Positions 1 through 36,532 of a stretch of DNA of 64,000 nucleotides are shown here, one piece after another (positions within the stretch are counted from its first letter, which is position 1; each line of letters opens with the position of its first letter). The notes beneath the pieces were generated by a model. That model was given only the letters and a program-made list of their open reading frames with translations. It had not been told where the DNA came from and searched no databases. The position numbers were made by a program, and so were the translations under genes. This stretch comes from Chitiniphilus purpureus. Its GTDB lineage: Bacteria > Pseudomonadota > Gammaproteobacteria > Burkholderiales > Chitinibacteraceae. The stretch spans positions 3,597,501-3,661,500 of the forward strand of contig NZ_CP106753.1 in NCBI RefSeq assembly GCF_025642115.1, given 5' to 3'.

Positions 1-737
1 GGGCGCGACACCCGGAAGCCCCGCAGCTGCCGCGCAAGGCCAGGCAGGTCATGGCCGGGCGGCAGGTCCGGGGCGTGCCGGCCTGCGGTCAGGCGTTCGA
101 GCAGGCGCAGCCGCCATTTGTCCGCCGGGTTGGTGTTGCCCAGCGCAGCCAGCAGCGCGCCGATCAGGTGACCGCGGTACTGTTCGATCAGTTGGATGGC
201 GCTGGCTGCGTCTCCATCCTCGATCTGCCCCAGGATGTCCAGGTGCAGCATGCCCAGATAGACCTGTGACAGGTCGAACAGGATGCGCGACAGCGTGCGC
301 GGTACGATCCGTGCCTGCCAGTCGGCCAACCGGGGGGCGCCGAACAGCGGGACACCTTGCCGCAGGTTGTGCAGCAGCTTGAGCTCGGCGGCCGAGAATG
401 CCGTGGCGGCGCGGCGTGGATCGACATCGTGGTCGGGCGCGAACCGCGCCAGCCGTCCGATCAGTGCCTCGATCCGCTCCGGTGCCACGATCTCCACGTC
501 CACCGGACAGGCCTCGAACGGAATGATCAGCACCGAGGCGAAGTCGGCGCGCGCCTCGAAGGTGCGCCCGGTGACCAGATAGACGTCGATGTCCGAGCGC
601 AGGTTGCCCAGGCCCTCCACCAGCGAGCCGGTCACATAGAGCACGTCGTCGCCGCAGGCGCCGGTCTCGTCGAGCAGCATGCAAGACAGCGCCTCCAGCC
701 CGGTATCGTGCCATTCCAGGTAGGCGTGGATATCCAT
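1..737 (-). CDS. Nucleotidyltransferase-fold protein (C-terminus off the window)
   Basis: The frame stays open from the ATG at 737 to the window edge, so about 245 residues are visible and the C-terminus is missing. Residues 37-51 read G-S-L-V-E-G-L-G-N-x-x-S-D-I-D, the metal-binding signature of the DNA polymerase beta-type nucleotidyltransferase superfamily, and a later D-V-E near residue 80 fits the third acidic position. This suggests transfer of a nucleotide to an unknown acceptor. The rest is helical, without recognised domains. It begins 15 bases after the stop of the TPR gene on the same strand, so the two are probably co-transcribed. Substrate and pathway cannot be told from the sequence. 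Confidence 0.75.
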   Translation of the reverse strand, partial: MDIHAYLEWHDTGLEALSCMLLDETGACGDDVLYVTGSLVEGLGNLRSDIDVYLVTGRTFEARADFASVLIIPFEACPVDVEIVAPERIEALIGRLARFAPDHDVDPRRAATAFSAAELKLLHNLRQGVPLFGAPRLADWQARIVPRTLSRILFDLSQVYLGMLHLDILGQIEDGDAASAIQLIEQYRGHLIGALLAALGNTNPADKWRLRLLERLTAGRHAPDLPPGHDLPGLARQLRGFRVSR

Positions 738-752
738 CGGTGGCGCGCCCGC

Positions 753-1400
753 TCACACCGCGGCGGCAAACTTGCTTGCCAGGTCGGCGATCGTGCCGCG
801 CAGACCGGGGCCGCTGCCGGCTTTCACCAGCCGCAGTGCGGCATGCAGCTCGGCGAACTCGGGGTGCTCGCCCATCTTCTTGGCCAGGTTCTGCGCCGCG
901 GCGATGTCGCCGCTGCCCAGATGCAGCTGCGCCAGACGGAACGCTGCATAGTCGTCGCCTGACTGCAGCTTGAGCGCCGCGGCATAGGCGGTCTTGGCAT
1001 CCTCGGCATTGCCGCTCTCGCGGTGGGCATCGCCCAGCACGGTCTGCACCGAGCGTGGGCGGCCGGTGATGTCGGAGAACTTGAACTTGGCGTTCTGCTG
1101 GGCCACTTCCAACGCGGTCTTGAGCGCGGTCGGGCGGCGGCGCTGCTTGGTATAGAGGATGGCCAGCCGCGCCTTGGCCTCCAGCGAGCCCGGGTCGTGC
1201 TGCAACGCCGCCTGGTAATGCTTCTGTGCCAGCTGGAACGTCTGCGCCACCTCGCGGATCTTGCCGGCGGCCACCAGGCGCGCGGCATCGCTTTGTGCCT
1301 GCTCCACCTCGCCGACCAGGCGCTGGAGCGCCGCTATGATTTCCCTGCCCTTGGCGGCCGCCAGCTGCAGATCGCTGCTGATATCTGGGACATCCTTCAT
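753..1400 (-). CDS. Tetratricopeptide-repeat protein
   Basis: This 215-residue protein has no signal peptide or membrane segment and is probably cytoplasmic. Residues about 55-180 contain degenerate TPR units, for example the segments with A-x-x-H-Y-Q-A-A-L-Q-H-D-P-G-S and A-K-T-A-Y-A-A-A-L-K-L. These normally form a helical scaffold for protein contacts. The N-terminal 50 residues look like a helix-rich or coiled-coil region. A good ribosome binding site, GAGGAG, lies about 7 bases before the ATG at 1400. It is followed 15 bases later by the nucleotidyltransferase-fold gene, so a joint role is possible, but no specific function can be assigned. Confidence 0.75.
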   Translation of the reverse strand: MKDVPDISSDLQLAAAKGREIIAALQRLVGEVEQAQSDAARLVAAGKIREVAQTFQLAQKHYQAALQHDPGSLEAKARLAILYTKQRRRPTALKTALEVAQQNAKFKFSDITGRPRSVQTVLGDAHRESGNAEDAKTAYAAALKLQSGDDYAAFRLAQLHLGSGDIAAAQNLAKKMGEHPEFAELHAALRLVKAGSGPGLRGTIADLASKFAAAV

Positions 1401-1688
1401 CGCCTATCTCCTCGGTTCGAATCGCCCGGGACAGCCGGGCTGCGAATGGCCGGCGCAGGACGCGGACAGCATATGCGCCGCGCCATGTGTTTCGGGGTAT
1501 AGCCGGGTGCGTTCAAACCGCAAGGCGCAACTCGTTGAACGGCAAGGTTGCGTACCCGTGACCGACAGATGGTTGACAAACCAGGACAGACAGAATCCAT
1601 GACGGATTGCACGATGACTGCGGCAAAACGCGCAACTTTGATCCAACCCGCTTGCCGCGCCCGACGGTGCAGCGCAGAATCGCCAGCT

Positions 1689-1762
1689 GACTCGGGGTGC
1701 CCCTGCCAGGGCTGAGACACACCCGCACCACCTGATCCGGATCATGCCGGCGTAGGGAAGTC
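1689..1762 (+). promoter_or_regulatory. TPP (thiamine pyrophosphate) riboswitch
   Basis: The stretch contains the conserved THI-element blocks in order: CTCGGGGTGCC at 1691, GCTGAGA at 1711, ACCTGATC near 1730, ATGCCGGCGTAGGGA at 1744, and a closing P1 helix GACT/AGTC. The layout closely matches the riboswitch in front of E. coli thiM. It ends 39 bases before the thiM start, which fits control of translation or early termination when TPP is plentiful. Confidence 0.95.
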
Positions 1763-1800
1763 CCAGGCGGCCTTTCCTGCACGGAACAAGGAGCCTGTCC

Positions 1801-2604
1801 ATGTCCCATCCCCCCACGCTGCCTTTCGTCGTGATCGCCGACGAGCTGGAAAGGCTGCGCGCCGAGCACCCACTGGTGCATGTGCTCACCAACGAGGTGG
1901 TGCAGGAGATCACCGCCAATGCGTTGCTGGCGGTCGGTGCCGCGCCGGCGATGATCGTGGCCGAGGAAGAGGCCGCCGAGTTCGCCGCGCTTGCCGGAGC
2001 GCTGCTGATCAACATCGGCACGCTCTACCCTGCCCGCTGGGCCGCCATGCAGCAGGCGGTGACGGCCGCCAACGCCGCCGGCGTACCCTGGACGCTCGAT
2101 CCGGTGGCGGTGGGGGTACTGGGCTACCGCACCGCCGCCTGCCGTGAGCTGCTGACGCAACACCCGGCCGCGATCCGCGGCAATGCCTCCGAGATCCTGG
2201 CGCTGGCCGGCTGGGGCGCAAGCGGACGCGGCGTGGACAGCACAGCCGGTTCGGCCAGCGCGCTGGCCGCCGCCGAGCAGCTGGCGCGCACCACCGGCGC
2301 GGTGGTCGCGGTCACCGGCGAGATCGACTACATCACCGATGGCGAGACCACCTGGGCTACCCCCTGGGGCCATCCGCTGATGACCCGGGTGGTGGGCACC
2401 GGCTGTGCGCTGTCGGCATTGGTCGCCGCATTCACGGCCCACACCGGCAACCGGCTCAACGCCGTAGCCGCCGCCTGTGCCGTGGCTGGTATCTGCGGCG
2501 AGCGCGCCCAGAGTGCGTGCGACGGCCCCGGCTCGTTCAGGTTTTCGTTCCTCGATGCGCTCTACGTGCTCAGTCCCAAGCAGCTGCGGGAGCTGTCGCT
2601 ATGA
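1801..2604 (+). CDS. thiM: Hydroxyethylthiazole kinase
   Basis: The enzyme phosphorylates 4-methyl-5-(2-hydroxyethyl)thiazole, the thiazole salvage step of thiamine synthesis, in the cytoplasm. The 267-residue length is typical for ThiM. Visible family features are H-V-L-T-N-E-V near residue 27, N-I-G-T-L in the middle, L-D-P-V-A-V-G near 100, and the C-terminal catalytic V-V-G-T-G-C-A-L-S. It is the first gene of thiM-thiE-thiD, lies directly behind the TPP riboswitch, and its stop overlaps the thiE start as ATGA. No thiazole biosynthesis genes are present here, so the operon is a salvage unit. Confidence 0.95.
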   Translation: MSHPPTLPFVVIADELERLRAEHPLVHVLTNEVVQEITANALLAVGAAPAMIVAEEEAAEFAALAGALLINIGTLYPARWAAMQQAVTAANAAGVPWTLDPVAVGVLGYRTAACRELLTQHPAAIRGNASEILALAGWGASGRGVDSTAGSASALAAAEQLARTTGAVVAVTGEIDYITDGETTWATPWGHPLMTRVVGTGCALSALVAAFTAHTGNRLNAVAAACAVAGICGERAQSACDGPGSFRFSFLDALYVLSPKQLRELSL

Positions 2605-3239
2605 AACACTGCGACCTGTCGCTGTACCTGGTGCTGGATCCGGTACTGTGCGGCGGCGCCGAGGGCATGGTCGATACCGCGCGCATTGCCGCGCAACACG
2701 GTGTCACGGTGGTGCAGCTGCGCGCGCCGCAATGGAAGAAGCGGCAGTGGTTGGATACCGCACAGGCGCTGAAGGCGGCGCTCGATCCCTTGGGCGTGCC
2801 CTTGATCATCAACGACCAGATCGATGTGGCGCTGGCGGTCGATGCCGCTGGCGTGCACCTGGGCCAGGCCGACCTGCCCCCGGCAGTCGCGCGCCGGCTG
2901 CTCGGGCCGGACAAGCTCATCGGGCTGTCCACTTCCAACGCGGTGCAATTGGCGCAGGCGCCGCTCGATCTGATCGACTACCTCGGCGTCGGCCCGGTCT
3001 ACCCCACCGGCACCAAGGCGGATGCCTCACCGGTGATCGGCCTGCCGCAGTTTGCAAGCCTGATGGCTGCCAGGACGCTGCCGGCGGTGGGCATCGGCGG
3101 GATCCAGGCCGGTGGCGCCGCCGCCGTCATCCAAGCCGGTGCCGACGGCGTGGCCGTGGTATCGGCGATCTGCGGCCAGCCCGACATCGCCGGCGCGGTG
3201 CGCGCCTTGCGCCAGGAAATCGAAGGAGCCCGCCCATGA
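2601..3239 (+). CDS. thiE: Thiamine-phosphate synthase
   Basis: ThiE joins HMP-diphosphate and thiazole phosphate into thiamine phosphate. From the ATG at 2601 the protein has 212 residues, the usual size of this TIM-barrel enzyme. Seen in order are Y-L-V-L-D-P at the N-terminus, V-V-Q-L-R near residue 38 (phosphate and pyrimidine binding), L-I-I-N-D-Q (active-site Asp), [19 protein letters not shown] and the phosphate loop V-G-I-G-G-I. The frame is open further upstream, but the ATG overlapping the thiM stop is the natural translationally coupled start. The stop overlaps the thiD start. Confidence 0.93.
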
Positions 3240-4033
3240 CGGTGCACGCACTGACCATTGCCGGTTCGGATTCGGGCGGCGGCGCCGGCATCCAGGCCGA
3301 CCTGAAGACCTTTTCCGCGCTGGGCGCCTATGGCATGACCGTGCTGACCGCACTGACCGCGCAGAACACCCGTGGCGTCAATGCGGTGCATGCCGTGCCG
3401 CCGGCGTTCGTACTGCAGCAGCTGGACGCGGTGTTCGACGACATCCGCGTCGATGCGGTCAAGCTTGGCATGCTGGCCAACGCCGCCATCGTGCACGCGG
3501 TGGCCGAGGGTCTGGCGCGTCACCGGCCGCGCTGGGTGGTACTGGATACGGTGATGATCGCCAAGGGCGGTCACCCGTTGCTGGCGCCCGAGGCGATCGC
3601 TGCGATCCGCGACACCTTGTTGCCACTGGCGGGGCTGGTCACGCCCAACCTGCCCGAGGCCGCGGCCTTGCTGGGTTGTGCGCCGGCGCAGACCGAAAGC
3701 CAGATGCGTGAACAGGGCGAGGCATTGCTGCAGGCGGGCGCGCAGGCGGTGCTGATGAAGGGTGGACACCTGGGCGGCGCCGAGAGTCCGGATTGGCTGA
3801 TCATCCCAACGGGCGCGGTGCGCTTTGCTCACCCGCGCATCCCGACCCGCCACACCCACGGCACCGGCTGCACCTTGTCCGCGGCGCTGACGGCGTTGCG
3901 TCCGCATCATCCGGATTGGGCGGCGACCGTACTGGCGGCACGCACCTACCTGCAGGACGCCCTGCACGCCGCAGACCGGCTGCAGGTCGGGCAAGGCGTC
4001 GGTCCGGTCCATCATTTCCATCGGTGGTGGTAA
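3236..4033 (+). CDS. thiD: Hydroxymethylpyrimidine / phosphomethylpyrimidine kinase
   Basis: ThiD phosphorylates the pyrimidine HMP twice, giving HMP-diphosphate for ThiE. The 265-residue ribokinase-fold protein starts [16 protein letters not shown], the substrate-binding signature. It also shows D-A-V-K-L-G-M-L near residue 75, V-T-P-N-L-P-E-A near 135 and the catalytic anion hole H-G-T-G-C-T-L-S-A near 205. It overlaps thiE by 4 bases and closes the operon. With ThiM and ThiE it makes a complete salvage route from thiazole and pyrimidine to thiamine phosphate. Confidence 0.95.
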
Positions 4034-28161: not shown

Positions 28162-30090
28162 ATGGCAAAAATCATCGGTATCGATCTGGGCACCACCAAC
28201 AGCTGTGTGGCCGTCATCGAGAACGGGCAGCCCAAAGTCATCGAAAATGCAGAAGGCGCACGCACCACGCCGTCCATCATTGCCTATCAGGATGACGGCG
28301 AGATCCTGGTCGGCGCGCCGGCCAAGCGCCAGGCGGTGACCAATCCGCGCAACACGCTCTACGCCGTCAAGCGCCTGATCGGCCGCAAGTTCGAAGAGAA
28401 AGAGGTACAGAAGGACATCGACCTGATGCCCTACAGCATCGTCAAGGCGGACAACGGCGATGCCTGGGTGGAAGTGCGCGGCGACAAGAAGGCGCCGCCG
28501 CAGATCAGCGCCGAAGTGCTGCGCAAGATGAAGAAGACCGCCGAGGACTACCTTGGCGAGGAAGTGACCGAAGCCGTGATCACCGTACCGGCCTACTTCA
28601 ACGACAGCCAGCGCCAGGCCACCAAGGATGCCGGCCGCATCGCCGGTCTTGAGGTGAAGCGCATCATCAACGAGCCGACCGCCGCGGCGCTCGCGTTCGG
28701 CATGGACAAGAGCGAGAAGGGCGACCGCAAGATCGCCGTGTATGACCTGGGCGGCGGCACCTTCGACATCTCGATCATCGAGATCGCCGATGTCGATGGC
28801 GACAAGCAGTTCGAAGTGCTGGCCACCAACGGCGATACCTTCCTCGGCGGCGAGGACTTCGACCAACGCCTGATCGATTACATCATCGGCGAGTTCCAGA
28901 AGGATCAGGGCATCGACCTGAAGAAGGACGTGATGGCGCTGCAGCGGCTGAAGGAAGCCGCCGAGAAAGCCAAGATCGAGCTGTCGTCGAGCGCGCAGAC
29001 CGAAGTGAACTTGCCGTACATCACCATGGACGCCACCGGTCCCAAGCACCTGGTGCTGAAGATCACCCGCGCCAAGTTCGAGTCGCTGGTGGACGACCTG
29101 ATCGAACGCTCGATCGAGCCGTGCCGCATCGCGCTGAAGGACGCCGGCCTCAAGGCATCCGACATCGACGACGTGATCCTGGTCGGCGGCCAGACCCGGA
29201 TGCCCAAGGTGCAGGACAAGGTGAAGGAGTTCTTCGGCAAGGAGCCGCGCCGTGATGTGAACCCGGATGAGGCCGTGGCCGTCGGCGCCGCGATCCAGGG
29301 CGCCGTGCTCGGTGGCGATCGCAAGGACGTGCTGCTGCTGGACGTGACCCCGCTGAGCCTGGGCATCGAGACGCTGGGTGGCGTGATGACCAAGCTGATC
29401 CAGAAGAACACCACGATCCCGACCAAGGCATCGCAGGTGTTCTCGACGGCGGATGACAACCAGAGCGCGGTGACCATCCACGTGCTGCAGGGCGAGCGCG
29501 AGAAGGCGGGGGCCAACAAGAGCCTGGGCCAATTCAACCTGACCGACATCCCGCCGGCACCGCGCGGCACGCCGCAGATCGAGGTGACCTTCGACATCGA
29601 CGCCAACGGCATCCTGCATGTGTCGGCCAAGGACAAGGCCACCGGCAAGGAGAACAAGATCAAGATCCAGGCGTCCTCGGGCCTCTCCGAGGAGGAGATC
29701 CAGCGCATGGTGCGCGACGCCGAGCTCAATGCCGAAGAGGACAAGAAGCTCTCCGAGCTGGTCACCGCCCGCAACCAGGGCGACGCGATGATCCACTCGG
29801 TCAGGAAATCGCTGACCGAATTCGGCGACAAGATCGCCGCCGACGAGAAGGCCGCCATCGAGACCGCGATCAGCGAGCTCGAAGCGGTGGTGAAGGGCGA
29901 CGACAAGGACGCGATCGAAGCCAAGACCAACGCACTGATGCAGGCATCGCACAAGCTGGCTGAACAGATGTACGGCCAGCAGGGTGCCGAGGGCGCGGCA
30001 GCCGCCGGGGCCGCCGGCGGCGAGGCCGGCAAGGGCGACGACGGCAATGTGGTCGATGCCGAGTTCACCGAGGTGAAAGAGAACAAGTGA
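28162..30090 (+). CDS. dnaK: Chaperone DnaK (Hsp70)
   Basis: The 642-residue ATP-driven chaperone starts [15 protein letters not shown]. It has the usual ATPase-domain phosphate and adenosine motifs ([10 protein letters not shown] near 195, L-V-G-G-Q-T-R-M-P near 340), the substrate-binding domain ([12 protein letters not shown] near 393) and a Gly/Ala-rich C-terminal tail ending [12 protein letters not shown] 28162 follows AAAGGA. Its TGA stop lies inside the first unit of the heptad array that borders the four-helix-bundle gene, so the insertion reaches exactly to its end. Confidence 0.97.
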
Positions 30091-30114
30091 GGCGTAAGGA
30101 GTGAGGGGTGAGGC
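30087..30114 (+). repeat. Upstream heptad array, (GTRAGGN)x4
   Basis: Four tandem 7-base units, GTGAGGC, GTAAGGA, GTGAGGG and GTGAGGC, run without gaps from the dnaK stop codon (TGA at 30088-30090) to the GTG start of the next gene (30108). Unit 2 and 3 together supply its ribosome site AAGGAG. The array is an inverted partner of the CCTCACA array at 30473-30500. Confidence 0.9.
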
Positions 30115-30461
30115 GTAAACATCATGACTTGCTGGCGTGGCAGACAGCCATGCGTTTGGTCGAGATGGTCTACGCCTTCACCTCCACGCTTTCACGCGAT
30201 GAAGCTTTCAATCTGACCAGCCAGATGCGACGCGCCGCCGTATCTGTGCCAAGCAATATCGCAGAAGGTGCCGCCCGGATGACTGAAAAGGAATTCGGGC
30301 ATTTTCTTGGTATTGCCCGAGGTTCGCTAAGCGAGCTGGAAACCCAGTATTTGCTGGTGTGCCGGCTAGGTTTGGCTGAGCCCTCTCACGAATTGGAGGA
30401 AGGTTTGAATGAAGTGTTCGGTTTGCTCGGTGGCCTGATACGCTCGCTCAAGCGGGAATAG
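30108..30461 (+). CDS. Four-helix-bundle protein (23S rRNA intervening-sequence / Avd-like family)
   Basis: This 117-residue helical protein belongs to the family often encoded in intervening sequences of 23S rRNA genes and related to the Avd accessory protein of diversity-generating retroelements. Hallmarks are L-L-A-W-Q-T-A-M-R-L-V at residue 8, Q-M-R-R-A-A-V-S-V-P-S-N-I-A-E-G near 39 and R-G-S-L-S-E-L-E-T-Q near 71. Family members form pentameric barrels and may bind nucleic acid; their cellular function is unknown. The start must be GTG 30108, since the next ATG would remove the first motif. By hand count bases 30121-30420 are about 54% G+C, below the neighbours. It sits between dnaK and dnaJ and is bordered by inverted heptad arrays, which points to acquisition as a unit. 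Confidence 0.88.
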   Translation: MRRKHHDLLAWQTAMRLVEMVYAFTSTLSRDEAFNLTSQMRRAAVSVPSNIAEGAARMTEKEFGHFLGIARGSLSELETQYLLVCRLGLAEPSHELEEGLNEVFGLLGGLIRSLKRE

Positions 30462-30472
30462 CAGACGGACCA

Positions 30473-30500
30473 CCTCACACCTCACACCTCACACCTCACA
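30473..30500 (+). repeat. Downstream heptad array, (CCTCACA)x4
   Basis: Four perfect tandem CCTCACA units end 3 bases before the dnaJ ATG. Read on the other strand they are TGTGAGG, inverted relative to the array at 30087-30114. The two could pair in the transcript into a stem of up to 28 bases around the four-helix-bundle gene. The array occupies the place where the dnaJ ribosome site should be. Confidence 0.92.
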
Positions 30501-30503
30501 TAC

Positions 30504-31628
30504 ATGTCCAAAAAAGACTTTTACGACGTCCTCGGTGTCAATCGCGATGCCAGCGACGATGACATCAAGAAGGCCTACCGCAAGCTGGCGATGAAGTACC
30601 ACCCGGACCGCAATCCGGACAGCAAGGAAGCCGAGGAGAAGTTCAAGGAGGCCAAGGAGGCCTACGAGATCCTGTCCGAGCCGCAAAAGCGCGCCGCCTA
30701 CGACCAGTACGGCCACGCCGGGGTCGATCCGCAGGCGGGCGTGGGGGGCGGTTTCGGTGGTGGGGGCTTTGCCGATGCGTTCTCCGACATCTTCGGCGAC
30801 ATCTTCGGCGGTGGCCGCGGCGGTGGCGGTGGGCGCTCCAATGTGTATCGCGGTGCCGACCTGCGTTACAACATGGAAATCACGTTGGAGGAGGCCGCCC
30901 GGGGCATCGAGAAGCAGATCAAGATCCCGTCGCACGAAGAATGCGGCACCTGCCACGGCAGCGGCGCCAAGCCGGGCACCGAAGCCAAGACCTGCCATAC
31001 CTGCGGCGGGCACGGCCAGGTACGCGTCTCGCAAGGCTTCTTCAGCATCCAGCAGACCTGCCCCACCTGCCATGGCAGCGGCAAGTACATCCCCGATCCG
31101 TGCCGCACCTGCGGCGGCAACGGGCGCGTGCAGACGGCCAAGACGCTGGCGGTCAAGATTCCGGCCGGCGTCGATGAAGGCGACCGCATCCGCCTTTCCG
31201 GTGAGGGTGAACCGGGCGTCAACGGCGGCCCGCCGGGCGATCTGTATGTGGTGGTCCACCTCAAGGCGCACGGCGTGTTCGAGCGCGAGGGCAACGACCT
31301 GCATTGCGAGATGCCGATCAGCATCACCGTGGCGGCGCTGGGTGGCGAGATCGAGATCCCGACGCTCGACGGCAAGGCGCGGATCAGTATTCCGGCCGGC
31401 ACGCAGACCGGCCAGGTGTTCCGGCTGCGCAGCAAGGGCATCAAGGGCGTGCGCAGCGCCATCACCGGCGACCTGATGTGCCATGTGGTGGTGGAAACGC
31501 CGGTCAACCTGACCAGTCGCCAGAAGGAACTGCTGAAGGAATTCGAGGAGATCAGCGCCGGCGACGCCGCCAAGCACAACCCGCGCGCCAAGTCCTTCAT
31601 GGACAAGGTGAAGGACTTCTTCTCCTGA
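30504..31628 (+). CDS. dnaJ: Co-chaperone DnaJ (Hsp40)
   Basis: DnaJ delivers substrates to DnaK and triggers its ATPase. The 374-residue type I protein has the J domain with H-P-D near residue 33 and a Gly/Phe-rich linker (G-G-G-F-G-G-G-G-F). Four zinc repeats follow ([32 protein letters not shown]), then C-terminal substrate domains. The gene is intact. Unusually, no Shine-Dalgarno sequence precedes ATG 30504: the 28 bases upstream are CCTCACA repeats. No promoter of its own is evident, so it depends on read-through from dnaK across the inserted gene. Confidence 0.96.
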
Positions 31629-34675: not shown

Positions 34676-35254
34676 ATGCGAACCTTCAAGTTGTCCCTGA
34701 TCGCAGCAGCACTGCTGCTGGCCAGCCAAGCCCAAGCAGCTGTCACGACCATCACCTTCGACGACGTTCCGGGCGCCAACGCCGGCTCGTCGAACAACCA
34801 ACTGGTGGACTACGCCGGCTTCCAATGGAGCAACACCTACGCGCTGCACCAGTCCTACCATCCGGGTTCGGGCTACGACGTCGGCACCGTTTCCGGTGAC
34901 TGGGTCGGCTACACCGCCTGGGCGAGCCCGATCAGCTTCTCCGCAAGCGGCGCCTTCGATTTCTACGGCGGCTACTTCACCTCCGCCTGGGACGACACCC
35001 TGACCGTCAAGATCGCCGGCTTCCGCAATGGCGTCGAGATCTACAGTCAGGACATCGTGGTCAACAATGACTACCCGCAACTGTTCGGCCTGAACTTCCG
35101 CGGCGTCGATCGCGTGTCGTTCACCTCGCTGGGCCAGCACGTGGCCTTCGACAACCTGCAAGTGACCACGCCGGTGCCGGAACCCGAAACCTACGCCCTG
35201 ATGGGCCTGGGCCTCGTCGGCCTGCTGGCTGCCCGCCGCCGCAAGGCCAAGTAA
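34676..35254 (+). CDS. PEP-CTERM secreted protein 1
   Basis: The 192-residue precursor has a signal peptide ending A-S-Q-A-Q-A and a beta-rich domain (T-I-T-F-D-D-V-P near residue 24, F-D-F-Y-G-G-Y-F-T-S-A-W, V-A-F-D-N-L). It ends with a classic sorting signal: V-P-E-P-E-T-Y-A-L-M-G-L-G-L-V-G-L-L and A-R-R-R. PEP-CTERM proteins are cut and attached by an exosortase and usually accompany exopolysaccharide or biofilm formation. It is nearly identical to the gene 700 bases downstream in the signal, core and tail. No exosortase is in the window. Confidence 0.9.
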   Translation: MRTFKLSLIAAALLLASQAQAAVTTITFDDVPGANAGSSNNQLVDYAGFQWSNTYALHQSYHPGSGYDVGTVSGDWVGYTAWASPISFSASGAFDFYGGYFTSAWDDTLTVKIAGFRNGVEIYSQDIVVNNDYPQLFGLNFRGVDRVSFTSLGQHVAFDNLQVTTPVPEPETYALMGLGLVGLLAARRRKAK

Positions 35255-35797: not shown

Positions 35798-35859
35798 TTG
35801 TTGCAACAATTGTAATTATCCGCAGACACATCTAGCATGTGCGGGCCGGATAGTCTGGC
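35798..35859 (+). promoter_or_regulatory. Promoter, palindrome and leader dyad of PEP-CTERM gene 2
   Basis: A perfect palindrome TTGTTGCAACAA (35798-35809) abuts the -35 TTGTAA (35810-35815). The spacer is 17 bases, the -10 is TAGCAT (35833-35838), and the dyad GCCGGAT-A-GTCTGGC follows at 35845-35859. Gene 1 has the related TTGCA-AATTGTAA without the full palindrome. Confidence 0.7.
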
Positions 35860-35953
35860 CCTGACTGTTGTCCGGTTTCGGACACCGTCCGGGTCAACGC
35901 AGTATGAAATAACACCGGCACTTCTAGCTTCTTTCCCAAACTTTGGAGCTCAC

Positions 35954-36532
35954 ATGCGAACCTTCAAGTTGTCCTTGATCGCAGCCGCCCTGCTGCTGGC
36001 CAGCCAAGCGCAAGCCGCAGTCACCACGCTGACCTTTGACGATGTCCCCGGTGCCAATCCCGGTACCAATCTGAACGCGCTCGGCAACTACGGCGGCTTT
36101 ACTTGGGACAACACCTACGCCCTGCACCAGTCCTACCACCCGGGTTCGGGCTACGACCGTGGCGCGGTTTCCGGCGAATGGGTTGCCTACACCGCCTATG
36201 CCAACCCGATCAGCTTCTCGGCAGGCAACGCCTTCGACTTCTACGGTGGCTACTTCACCTCGGCCTGGGACAGCTCGCTGACCGTCAAGATCGCCGGCTT
36301 CCGCAATGGCGTCGAGATCTACAGCCAGGACATCGTGCTGAACAACCAGTATCCGCAGCTGTTCGGCCTGAACTTCCGCGGCGTGGACAAGGTTTCGTTC
36401 ACTTCGCTGGGCCAGCACGTGGCCTTCGACAACCTGCAAGTGACCACGCCGGTACCGGAACCCGAAACCTACGCCCTGATGGGCCTGGGTCTCGTGGGCC
36501 TGATGGCTGCACGCCGCCGCAAGGCCAAGTAA
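35954..36532 (+). CDS. PEP-CTERM secreted protein 2 (tandem paralogue)
   Basis: The 192-residue precursor has the same length and plan as PEP-CTERM protein 1: identical signal peptide through A-A-V-T-T, T-F-D-D-V-P-G-A-N, F-D-F-Y-G-G-Y-F-T-S-A-W and the tail P-V-P-E-P-E-T-Y-A-L-M-G-L-G. Differences cluster at residues about 34-65 (N-P-G-T-N-L-N-A-L-G against N-A-G-S-S-N-N-Q-L). It starts at ATG 35954 after TTGGAG; the longer upstream frame runs through the promoter. It has its own promoter and terminator, so the two paralogues are separate transcripts from a duplicated cassette. Confidence 0.9.
   Translation: MRTFKLSLIAAALLLASQAQAAVTTLTFDDVPGANPGTNLNALGNYGGFTWDNTYALHQSYHPGSGYDRGAVSGEWVAYTAYANPISFSAGNAFDFYGGYFTSAWDSSLTVKIAGFRNGVEIYSQDIVLNNQYPQLFGLNFRGVDKVSFTSLGQHVAFDNLQVTTPVPEPETYALMGLGLVGLMAARRRKAK

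What the first reader, a model, noticed from the sequence alone, without database searches (positions are those of the whole stretch)
30087..30500. A four-helix-bundle gene enclosed by inverted heptad arrays is inserted exactly between dnaK and dnaJ
Four GTRAGGN units run from the dnaK stop codon to the GTG start of the small gene, and four perfect CCTCACA units run to 3 bases before dnaJ. The arrays are inverted to each other. The array bases are reused as the dnaK stop, the ribosome site AAGGAG and the start codon of the insert. The enclosed gene is about 54% G+C over 30121-30420 by hand count and belongs to the rRNA intervening-sequence/Avd-like family of unknown function. Together this looks like a 414-bp transposable or spliceable unit with tandem-repeat ends, in a chaperone operon that is normally contiguous.
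Basis: partly seen in the sequence, partly recalled or inferred. Interest (0 to 1): 0.8.

Follow-up and report, generated by a model that had tools for sequence, protein, structure and literature searches.

The report
Mobile gene bounded by seven-base repeats
A small gene sitting between two chaperone genes is fenced on both sides by inverted runs of a seven-letter DNA word, and the same layout recurs around its relatives in many bacterial groups and as gene-less copies, which points to an overlooked kind of small mobile element.

Summary

It is not a local oddity. Of 117 distinct PF05635 loci from many bacterial groups, 91 have a period-7 array on at least one side. The arrays have consensus GKGANKN, most often four units per arm, and the two arms of a locus tend to be matched inverted copies although the heptad differs between loci.

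In relatives the junction is a 67-83 bp spacer; in occupied genomes that spacer is gone, replaced by the unit. Occupied species are scattered among congeners that keep the native spacer, and a relative with 90%-identical flanks holds a different unit with other heptads. A tree of the unit alone does not reject vertical descent.

Gene-less inverted heptad units fill other intergenic gaps of the same genomes, and arrays are associated with PF05635 genes. One relative has a PF05635 gene inside 23S rRNA (classical IVS). No RVT_1 reverse transcriptase was found in this genome.

Best reading: a mobile IVP/heptad element with miniature derivatives, rRNA intervening sequences being one subset. How it moves is inference.

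The parts
28162..30090 (+). dnaK, upstream neighbour; its TGA stop is supplied by the first heptad
   Evidence: translation (named from its recognisable sequence, no HMM run); the empty relatives with the 67-83 bp spacer end in TAA
30087..30114 (+). upstream arm, four heptads GTGAGGC GTAAGGA GTGAGGG GTGAGGC
30096..30101 (+). AAGGAG ribosome-site-like sequence inside the arm, 6 nt before GTG
   Evidence: read directly
30108..30461 (+). IVP gene, 117 aa, PF05635 / TIGR02436 four-helix bundle, Avd-like fold
30473..30500 (+). downstream arm, CCTCACA x4, inverted to the upstream arm
30087..30500 (+). whole 414-bp unit; stands in place of the 67-83 bp dnaK-dnaJ spacer of relatives
30504..31628 (+). 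dnaJ, downstream neighbour; no ribosome-site-like stretch seen between arm and ATG
   Evidence: read by eye; named from its recognisable sequence

Best explanation
The 414-bp unit is an IVP/heptad element: a small mobile or horizontally exchanged intergenic element made of two inverted arms of four GKGANKN heptads around a gene for an Avd-like four-helix-bundle protein. SHOWN: the arms, their generality over the PF05635 family, their matching within a locus, and the replacement of the native spacer. SUPPORTED BUT NOT PROVEN: repeated gain or exchange of the unit (scattered occupancy among congeners; another unit between near-identical flanks); gene-less inverted heptad units as miniature derivatives. 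INFERRED: the IVP protein, a pentamer in its solved relative, binds the heptad arms as RNA or DNA and is the specificity factor by which units end up next to stop codons in operons; host recombination or repair does the joining; in transcripts the arms pair into a hairpin that RNase III can cut, as in 23S rRNA intervening sequences, which makes a unit between operon genes tolerable.
For: 120 PF05635 loci (117 distinct): at least 17/21 matches at lag 7 in 62 upstream and 80 downstream flanks, 94 on either side; controls 16/705 and 14/616. 55 representatives below 60% identity: 41 with an array; control windows behind other stop codons 54/961. Lag 7 and its harmonic 14 alone stand out among lags 3-15. 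Own arms' inverted score median 20 against 9 for swapped partners; arms agree at heptad positions 2, 5, 6 in 0.90/0.78/0.81 of 67 loci against 0.48/0.32/0.38 shuffled. Four-heptad mode, 47/89 and 50/84 arms. Left arm at the stop codon of a co-oriented ORF in 58/77 loci against 36/975 random positions. Scattered occupancy: G009 occupied, congeners G007, G008, G011, G012 empty; G026 occupied, G024, G025 empty; G040 occupied, G039, G041, G042 empty. Unit 56.2% alike between flanks 89.8/90.6% alike, G000-G002. Four-heptad arrays in 24/57 PF05635+ against 9/217 PF05635- class genomes, p 4.6e-12. Empty and occupied sites of two gene-less units.
Against: A DNA tree of six units does not reject vertical grouping of G000, G001 and G040 (p-AU 0.31), while the flank tree does reject G000 with G009 and G017 (p 0.0076), so tree conflict is not shown. 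The unit's higher identity than dnaK in G000-G017 (83.0 against 69.6) may owe something to base composition; against dnaJ it is 75.9 (p 0.008), and in G000-G009 not significant (p 0.16). No transposase, nuclease or RT domain in the unit; no RVT_1 in this genome. No target duplications seen by eye. Single gene copy here; the two of four G126 copies that my script printed are of different types. The six-base core is the same in both arms in 37 of 67 loci only. Heptad core follows IVP similarity only above about 70% identity and is near random below 60%. Within the family, 13 of 28 genomes without PF05635 also have an array of one of two types, 14 of 15 with it (p 0.003); G004, G010 and G042 are array-rich without the gene.
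Confidence: 0.62

Rival explanations
1. Heptad arrays are independent simple-sequence repeats or regulatory hairpins that expand by slippage; the IVP gene is a passenger that recombines between arrays it did not make.
For: Long one-sided arrays; 9 of 217 PF05635- class genomes and 13 of 28 PF05635- family genomes with arrays; array-rich G004, G010, G042 without the gene; mosaic arrays that switch heptad in blocks in G316; weak tie of heptad core to IVP sequence below 60% identity.
Against: PF05635 genes of many groups lie between matched inverted arms with a four-unit mode, which a passenger would not need; class-level association with the gene.
Confidence: 0.22
2. The unit acts mainly as an RNA: an IVS-like insert cut out of the dnaK-dnaJ transcript by RNase III, with no DNA mobility of its own today; its scattered presence comes from vertical descent, loss and ordinary recombination through the conserved flanks.
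For: Outer heptads pair in the predicted fold, z -6.85 for the whole 427 nt, coding part included; PF05635 in 23S rRNA of G027; unit tree compatible with vertical descent; RNase III excision and heptamers of the Coxiella IVS (PMC4990558, abstract, sections 3 and 19, passages).
Against: Loss would have to restore the native spacer several times; recombination in G002 would have to end close to the arms; gene-less units lie in other operons too.
Confidence: 0.27
3. A reverse-transcription element like a diversity-generating retroelement, with IVP in the role of Avd and a resident RT copying the unit.
For: Fold match to DGR Avd, 8ub8 and 4dwl, TM 0.79 and 0.76, E about 0.02; homology of PF05635 and Avd stated in PMC10053308 (passages); RVT_1 present in G009, G010, G026, G040.
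Against: No RVT_1 in G000, G001, G002, G004, G017, which have arrays or the gene; four of these are draft assemblies.
Confidence: 0.06
4. An old resident gene with chance repeats at its borders.
For: Several relatives carry the gene at the same junction.
Confidence: 0.02

Closest known systems
23S rRNA intervening sequences (IVS) with S23p/IVP open reading frame
   Same: Inverted complementary ends, same protein family, replacement of a small native segment, heptamers before the ORF recorded in Coxiella (PMC4990558, sections 3 and 19, passages)
   Different: Here the unit lies between protein genes, has four heptads per arm, and gene-less units are dispersed in the genome
GGGAATC heptad repeats of Xanthomonas and GGGGA(C/T)T of Nostoc (PMC4692102, passages and section 10)
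   Same: Seven-base unit, four units the commonest, 70 and 75 inverted pairs in the two Xanthomonas, mostly intergenic, close to the upstream ORF
   Different: Treated there as quadruplex repeats; only a few inverted pairs in Nostoc; the words S23 and four helix do not occur in its main text
REPIN / RAYT systems
   Same: Dispersed palindromic units and a gene bounded by the same repeats (recalled; abstracts in the listing)
   Different: RAYT is a Y1 transposase (recalled); IVP matches only PF05635 and has no known nuclease
TAACTGA heptamers of Beggiatoaceae, cyanobacteria, Bacteroidetes (PMC4679880, passages)
   Same: Intergenic heptamer arrays, scattered distribution, horizontal transfer suspected there
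   Different: Direct arrays; S23 and four helix do not occur in its main text; a link to PF05635 was not tested here
DGR accessory protein Avd
   Same: Four-helix bundle fold (4DWL, 8UB8)
   Different: No RVT_1 in this genome; no template repeat looked for

Membership tests
23S rRNA IVS | lies inside an rRNA gene | tested here: not met
   unit lies between dnaK and dnaJ; no Rfam match at E 0.1 in 29900-30700
23S rRNA IVS | inverted complementary ends | tested here: met
23S rRNA IVS | S23p/IVP ORF (optional in the class) | tested here: met
   PF05635 107 bits
23S rRNA IVS | excised by RNase III without ligation | not testable with these tools
   predicted fold only
DGR | reverse transcriptase | tested here: not met
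   no RVT_1 (PF00078) in G000
DGR | Avd-like four-helix bundle | tested here: met
DGR | template and variable repeats | not tested
REPIN/RAYT | Y1 (HUH) transposase gene bounded by the repeats | tested here: not met
   only PF05635 matches the enclosed ORF
REPIN/RAYT | dispersed palindromic gene-less units | tested here: met
insertion sequence / MITE | transposase in the autonomous copy | tested here: not met
insertion sequence / MITE | target-site duplication | tested here: inconclusive
   none seen by eye; native bases are replaced
group I or II intron | Rfam ribozyme core | tested here: not met
   no Rfam match at E 0.1

The most novel reading that the evidence does not exclude
A widespread, unnamed class of mobile DNA that carries neither transposase nor reverse transcriptase: matched inverted arms of four GKGANKN heptads are the recognition ends, an Avd-like pentamer is the trans-acting factor that places gene-bearing and gene-less units at stop codons of operon genes, and rRNA intervening sequences, the Xanthomonas and Nostoc heptad repeats and perhaps the cyanobacterial STRR heptamers (recalled) are all products of it.
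Probability: 0.38. Interest if true: 0.95.

Novelty: new variant of a known kind. Interest (0 to 1): 0.83.

Why it matters
PF05635 is a large family (7,981 proteins at E 0.001 or better among the 7,994 candidates scored) without known function. The origin of rRNA intervening sequences is called unclear in PMC4990558 (section 19), and the heptad repeats of Xanthomonas and Nostoc have been described without a maker (PMC4692102, passages and section 10). The finding ties the three together with one anatomy and gives a direct test: does the protein bind the heptads that bound its own gene. It could also explain many intergenic hairpins inside bacterial operons.

Tried and rejected
Chance repeats: rejected. 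Plain insertion into the spacer: rejected, the spacer is gone. RT-driven spread in this genome: disfavoured. Phage link: no match in 50,697 phage records. Defence gene: no PADLOC match. Known RNA family at the unit: none. Strict protein-heptad co-evolution: not shown. Tree conflict between unit and flanks: not shown. Pairing between the inner borders of gene-less units beyond a shared border consensus: not shown, 5.55 of 14 against 5.48 re-paired; that call used 20 of the 26 distinct inner sequences, leaving out five of 7-18 bases and one whose border the array call had swallowed.

Rows dropped or doubled: the 120 loci are 80, 27 of 29 class loci (L220 and L238 dropped as the frame was unclear) and 13 family loci. 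Three loci are in twice (L171/L054, L180/L056, L187/L058); without the doubles the counts become 61, 77 and 91 of 117. The split G001 gene and five further G027 copies were not among them. Short contig ends leave 112 loci, 77, 74 (the last two also need a detected arm). In one search a locus's own pairing was in the top 5% of all partners in 62.5% of loci only. The flank counts typed into one search were derived from the percentages.

Controls that are not clean: the reversed pattern also hits mainly PF05635+ genomes (21 of 57 against 10 of 217), as it reads as another heptad type. The 57 include 5 genomes below the family's cut-off. The 24 genomes were picked for GKGA-type arms, so 24 of 24 is not an unbiased rate; hits run from 1 to 245, 17 of 24 genomes having 20 or more, and the reversed pattern hits many of them too. 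In one search the listed places show arrays away from the gene in 12 of the 13 PF05635+ genomes listed (my reading); the other 11 positives were not listed. One of the six CCTCAC-type family genomes (G026) has a single hit, which may be its own arm.

Paper searches about this link, papers listed of papers found: 15 of 813; 18 of 18; 15 of 200; 15 of 19; 20 of 1,382; 2 of 2; 6 of 6; 10 of 29. No listed title or abstract start joins heptad arrays to PF05635 genes outside the Coxiella IVS paper. I opened five papers, not whole. The library lacks most subscription journals.

Full report
What is there. The unit 30087-30500 is as described, to the base. The host genome (G000, 4.19 Mb) belongs with Chitinibacteraceae, judged from the names of the nearest proteins and from G002 of the same genus, whose contig length equals that of a Chitiniphilus shinanonensis scaffold. 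The gene is a PF05635 / TIGR02436 protein. Its predicted structure (pLDDT 94) matches 2GSC, the Xanthomonas XCC0516 protein, then 2RLD, then, at E about 0.02, Avd of a diversity-generating retroelement; that 2GSC is a pentamer is stated in PMC4990558 (section 3). It is the only PF05635 match in the genome. Its G+C is 54.8% and GC3 0.61, against GC3 0.89 for dnaK.

The arms are general. I gathered 120 PF05635 loci, 117 of them distinct: 80 from named genomes, the rest from the class and family searches. At 21 of 24 matches, lag 7 is seen in 31 of 119 upstream and 47 of 117 downstream flanks, with 0 of 113 and 0 of 101 in controls 1 kb away; among lags 3-15 only the harmonic 14 is also high, lags 8 and 9 have at most 2. 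At 17 of 21 matches, 94 of 120 loci (91 of 117 distinct) have an array on a side. After thinning to 55 representatives below 60% identity 41 remain positive; control windows behind other stop codons of the same loci give 54 of 961. Six cyanobacterial plasmid copies looked at by eye have heptad-like inverted flanks of varying regularity.

The arms are matched. Within a locus the upstream flank aligns to the reverse complement of the downstream flank with median score 20 (112 loci); swapped partners and regions 1 kb away give 9; the own pairing is in the top 5% of partners in 62.5% of loci. Rotation-aligned heptads of 173 arms give G-K-G-A-N-K-N, 5.43 bits against at most 4.45 in 200 shuffles. 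Position 7 varies most inside arrays (17%). Positions 2, 5 and 6 differ between loci but agree between the arms of a locus in 0.90, 0.78 and 0.81 of 67 loci; the whole six-base core is equal in 37 of 67. The commonest arm has four heptads, 47 of 89 upstream and 50 of 84 downstream.

Empty and occupied sites. The search returned 30 of the 43 family dnaJ loci. Of these 30, 17 have a 67-83 bp spacer, 16 of them with a GGCAC...GTGCC hairpin by my reading, ending in a purine-rich ribosome-site-like stretch; three have longer spacers (126, 228, 1176 bp); six are occupied; in four the dnaK end was not found. In the occupied ones an arm starts at or just after the dnaK stop and the other ends a few bases before dnaJ, with no native spacer left. 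G009 is a seventh occupied case. Over the wider set the left arm's outer edge lies within -10 to +20 of the stop of a co-oriented ORF of 120 codons or more in 58 of 77 loci (32 stops before the arm, 26 inside it) against 36 of 975 random positions. The right arm is followed by an ATG start of such an ORF in 34 of 74 (control 183 of 937) or meets a convergent stop in 30 of 74 (control 63 of 937); 48 of 74 have either. Since many heptads carry a stop triplet, part of the stops inside the arm is expected.

Gain or exchange. Occupied species are scattered: G009 among empty congeners G007, G008, G011, G012; G026 among G024, G025; G040 among G039, G041, G042; in the window's genus all three are occupied (genus codes, sites). 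Loss of the unit would have to restore the shared native spacer each time, so repeated gain or exchange is the simpler account. G002 has flanks 90% identical to G000 but a unit only 56% alike, with CCCTTCC heptads. Between G000 and G017 the unit is 83.0% identical while dnaK is 69.6% and dnaJ 75.9% (p 2e-7 and 0.008); G000-G009 gives 81.3 against 72.1 and 77.4, the second not significant; for G000-G001 and G000-G040 the unit is a little less alike than dnaK, not significantly. IVP proteins of G000 and G017 are 91% identical, of G000 and G040 79%, while DnaJ N-termini are 88% and 94%. But a DNA tree of six units does not reject a vertical grouping of G000, G001 and G040 (p 0.31), whereas the flank tree rejects G000 with G009 and G017 (p 0.0076; composition warnings). 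Transfer between these genera is thus suggested, not proven.

Gene-less units. G000 has 12 other inverted heptad pairs, some with short arms, and 4 one-sided arrays (my count; search). G009 likewise has pairs and long one-sided arrays. Two units were compared with relatives, in 14 and 8 of the 21 genomes searched. Between odhB and lpdA, G000, G002, G004 and G040 have CCTCAC units, G001 a GGGAAG-type unit, G015 and G039 weak traces, seven none. Between sucC and sucD, G000, G001 and G040 are occupied and five are empty with a short spacer; an AGGA-containing site before sucD is kept in both states. (Gene names recognised from sequence.) Borders next to the arms share NGTAAANCC: G in 39, T in 30, A in 27 of 40 borders; the inside of the window's unit starts CGTAAAC.

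Association. In 274 class genomes, four-heptad GKGANKN arrays occur in 24 of 57 with PF05635 and 9 of 217 without (p 4.6e-12). In the family the six genomes with a CCTCAC-type IVP all have CCTCAC arrays (G026 a single hit) against 7 of 37 others (p 0.0003); taking either of two array types, 14 of 15 with PF05635 and 13 of 28 without (p 0.003). Geotalea (G316) has arrays that switch from one heptad to another in blocks.

The rRNA member. G027 has six PF05635 matches of equal score. Rfam LSU covers 286-3324 of the one locus tested, and two more show the same flanks. Its ends are inverted and only weakly heptadic, 14 and 13 of 21. PMC4990558 (abstract, sections 3 and 19, passages) reports three GACAGAT heptamers, variable between strains, before the S23p ORF of the Coxiella IVS, RNase III excision, and an unclear origin.

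Published neighbours. PMC4692102 (passages and section 10) describes 186 and 183 GGGAATC-type arrays in two Xanthomonas, most with four units, and 70 and 75 inverted pairs, but only a few pairs in Nostoc; S23 and four helix do not occur in its main text. Xanthomonas PF05635 genes here have arms built of such units, with variants (L156, L159, L169, L183). PMC4679880 (passages) describes TAACTGA arrays. Cyanobacterial STRR heptamers are recalled; PMC4692102 mentions three heptanucleotides of Calothrix.

Mechanism. No enzyme for movement is visible: only PF05635 in the unit, no RVT_1 in G000, G001, G002, G004, G017, though G009, G010, G026 and G040 have one. The most likely working is that the IVP pentamer recognises the GKGA part of the heptads and acts as a placing or accessory factor, host recombination doing the chemistry; pairing of the outer heptads in RNA makes the insert cuttable and so tolerable in an operon. 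These last steps are inference.

Noticed in passing
G316 (Geotalea), C7:73037-73105 and others: Mosaic arrays in which blocks of one heptad (GTGATTG) switch to another (GTGACGA, GTGAGGA, GTGAAGA), as if added in runs.
   Followed up: no
L051 (G001) about 2361-2716: The IVP gene of G001 at dnaK-dnaJ is split between two frames while both arms are present.
   Followed up: partly
G000:C1:2507635-2507711 and 1925373-1925428; G009:C1:1147429-1147560: Long heptad arrays (8 to about 20 units) without an inverted partner, or in the G009 case with one of four units.
   Followed up: no
L239, L240 (two plasmids of Calothrix brevissima NIES-22): The same IVP unit with a phage-integrase gene upstream occurs on both plasmids, near-identical in the stretches printed.
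   Followed up: partly
P0001: A protein 93% identical to the window's IVP is named from Chitiniphilus shinanonensis, while G002, whose contig length equals a scaffold of that species, has a 52% one: perhaps two unit types within a species, or a naming issue.
   Followed up: no
window 34676-35254 and 35837-36532: Two neighbouring paralogous genes with PEP-CTERM-like tails (recognised by eye).
   Followed up: no
G027, six places (L061, L067, L069-L072): Six PF05635 matches of equal score in one genome of the family; the one tested lies inside a 23S rRNA gene.
   Followed up: partly
window 1683-1775: TPP riboswitch (Rfam RF00059).
   Followed up: no
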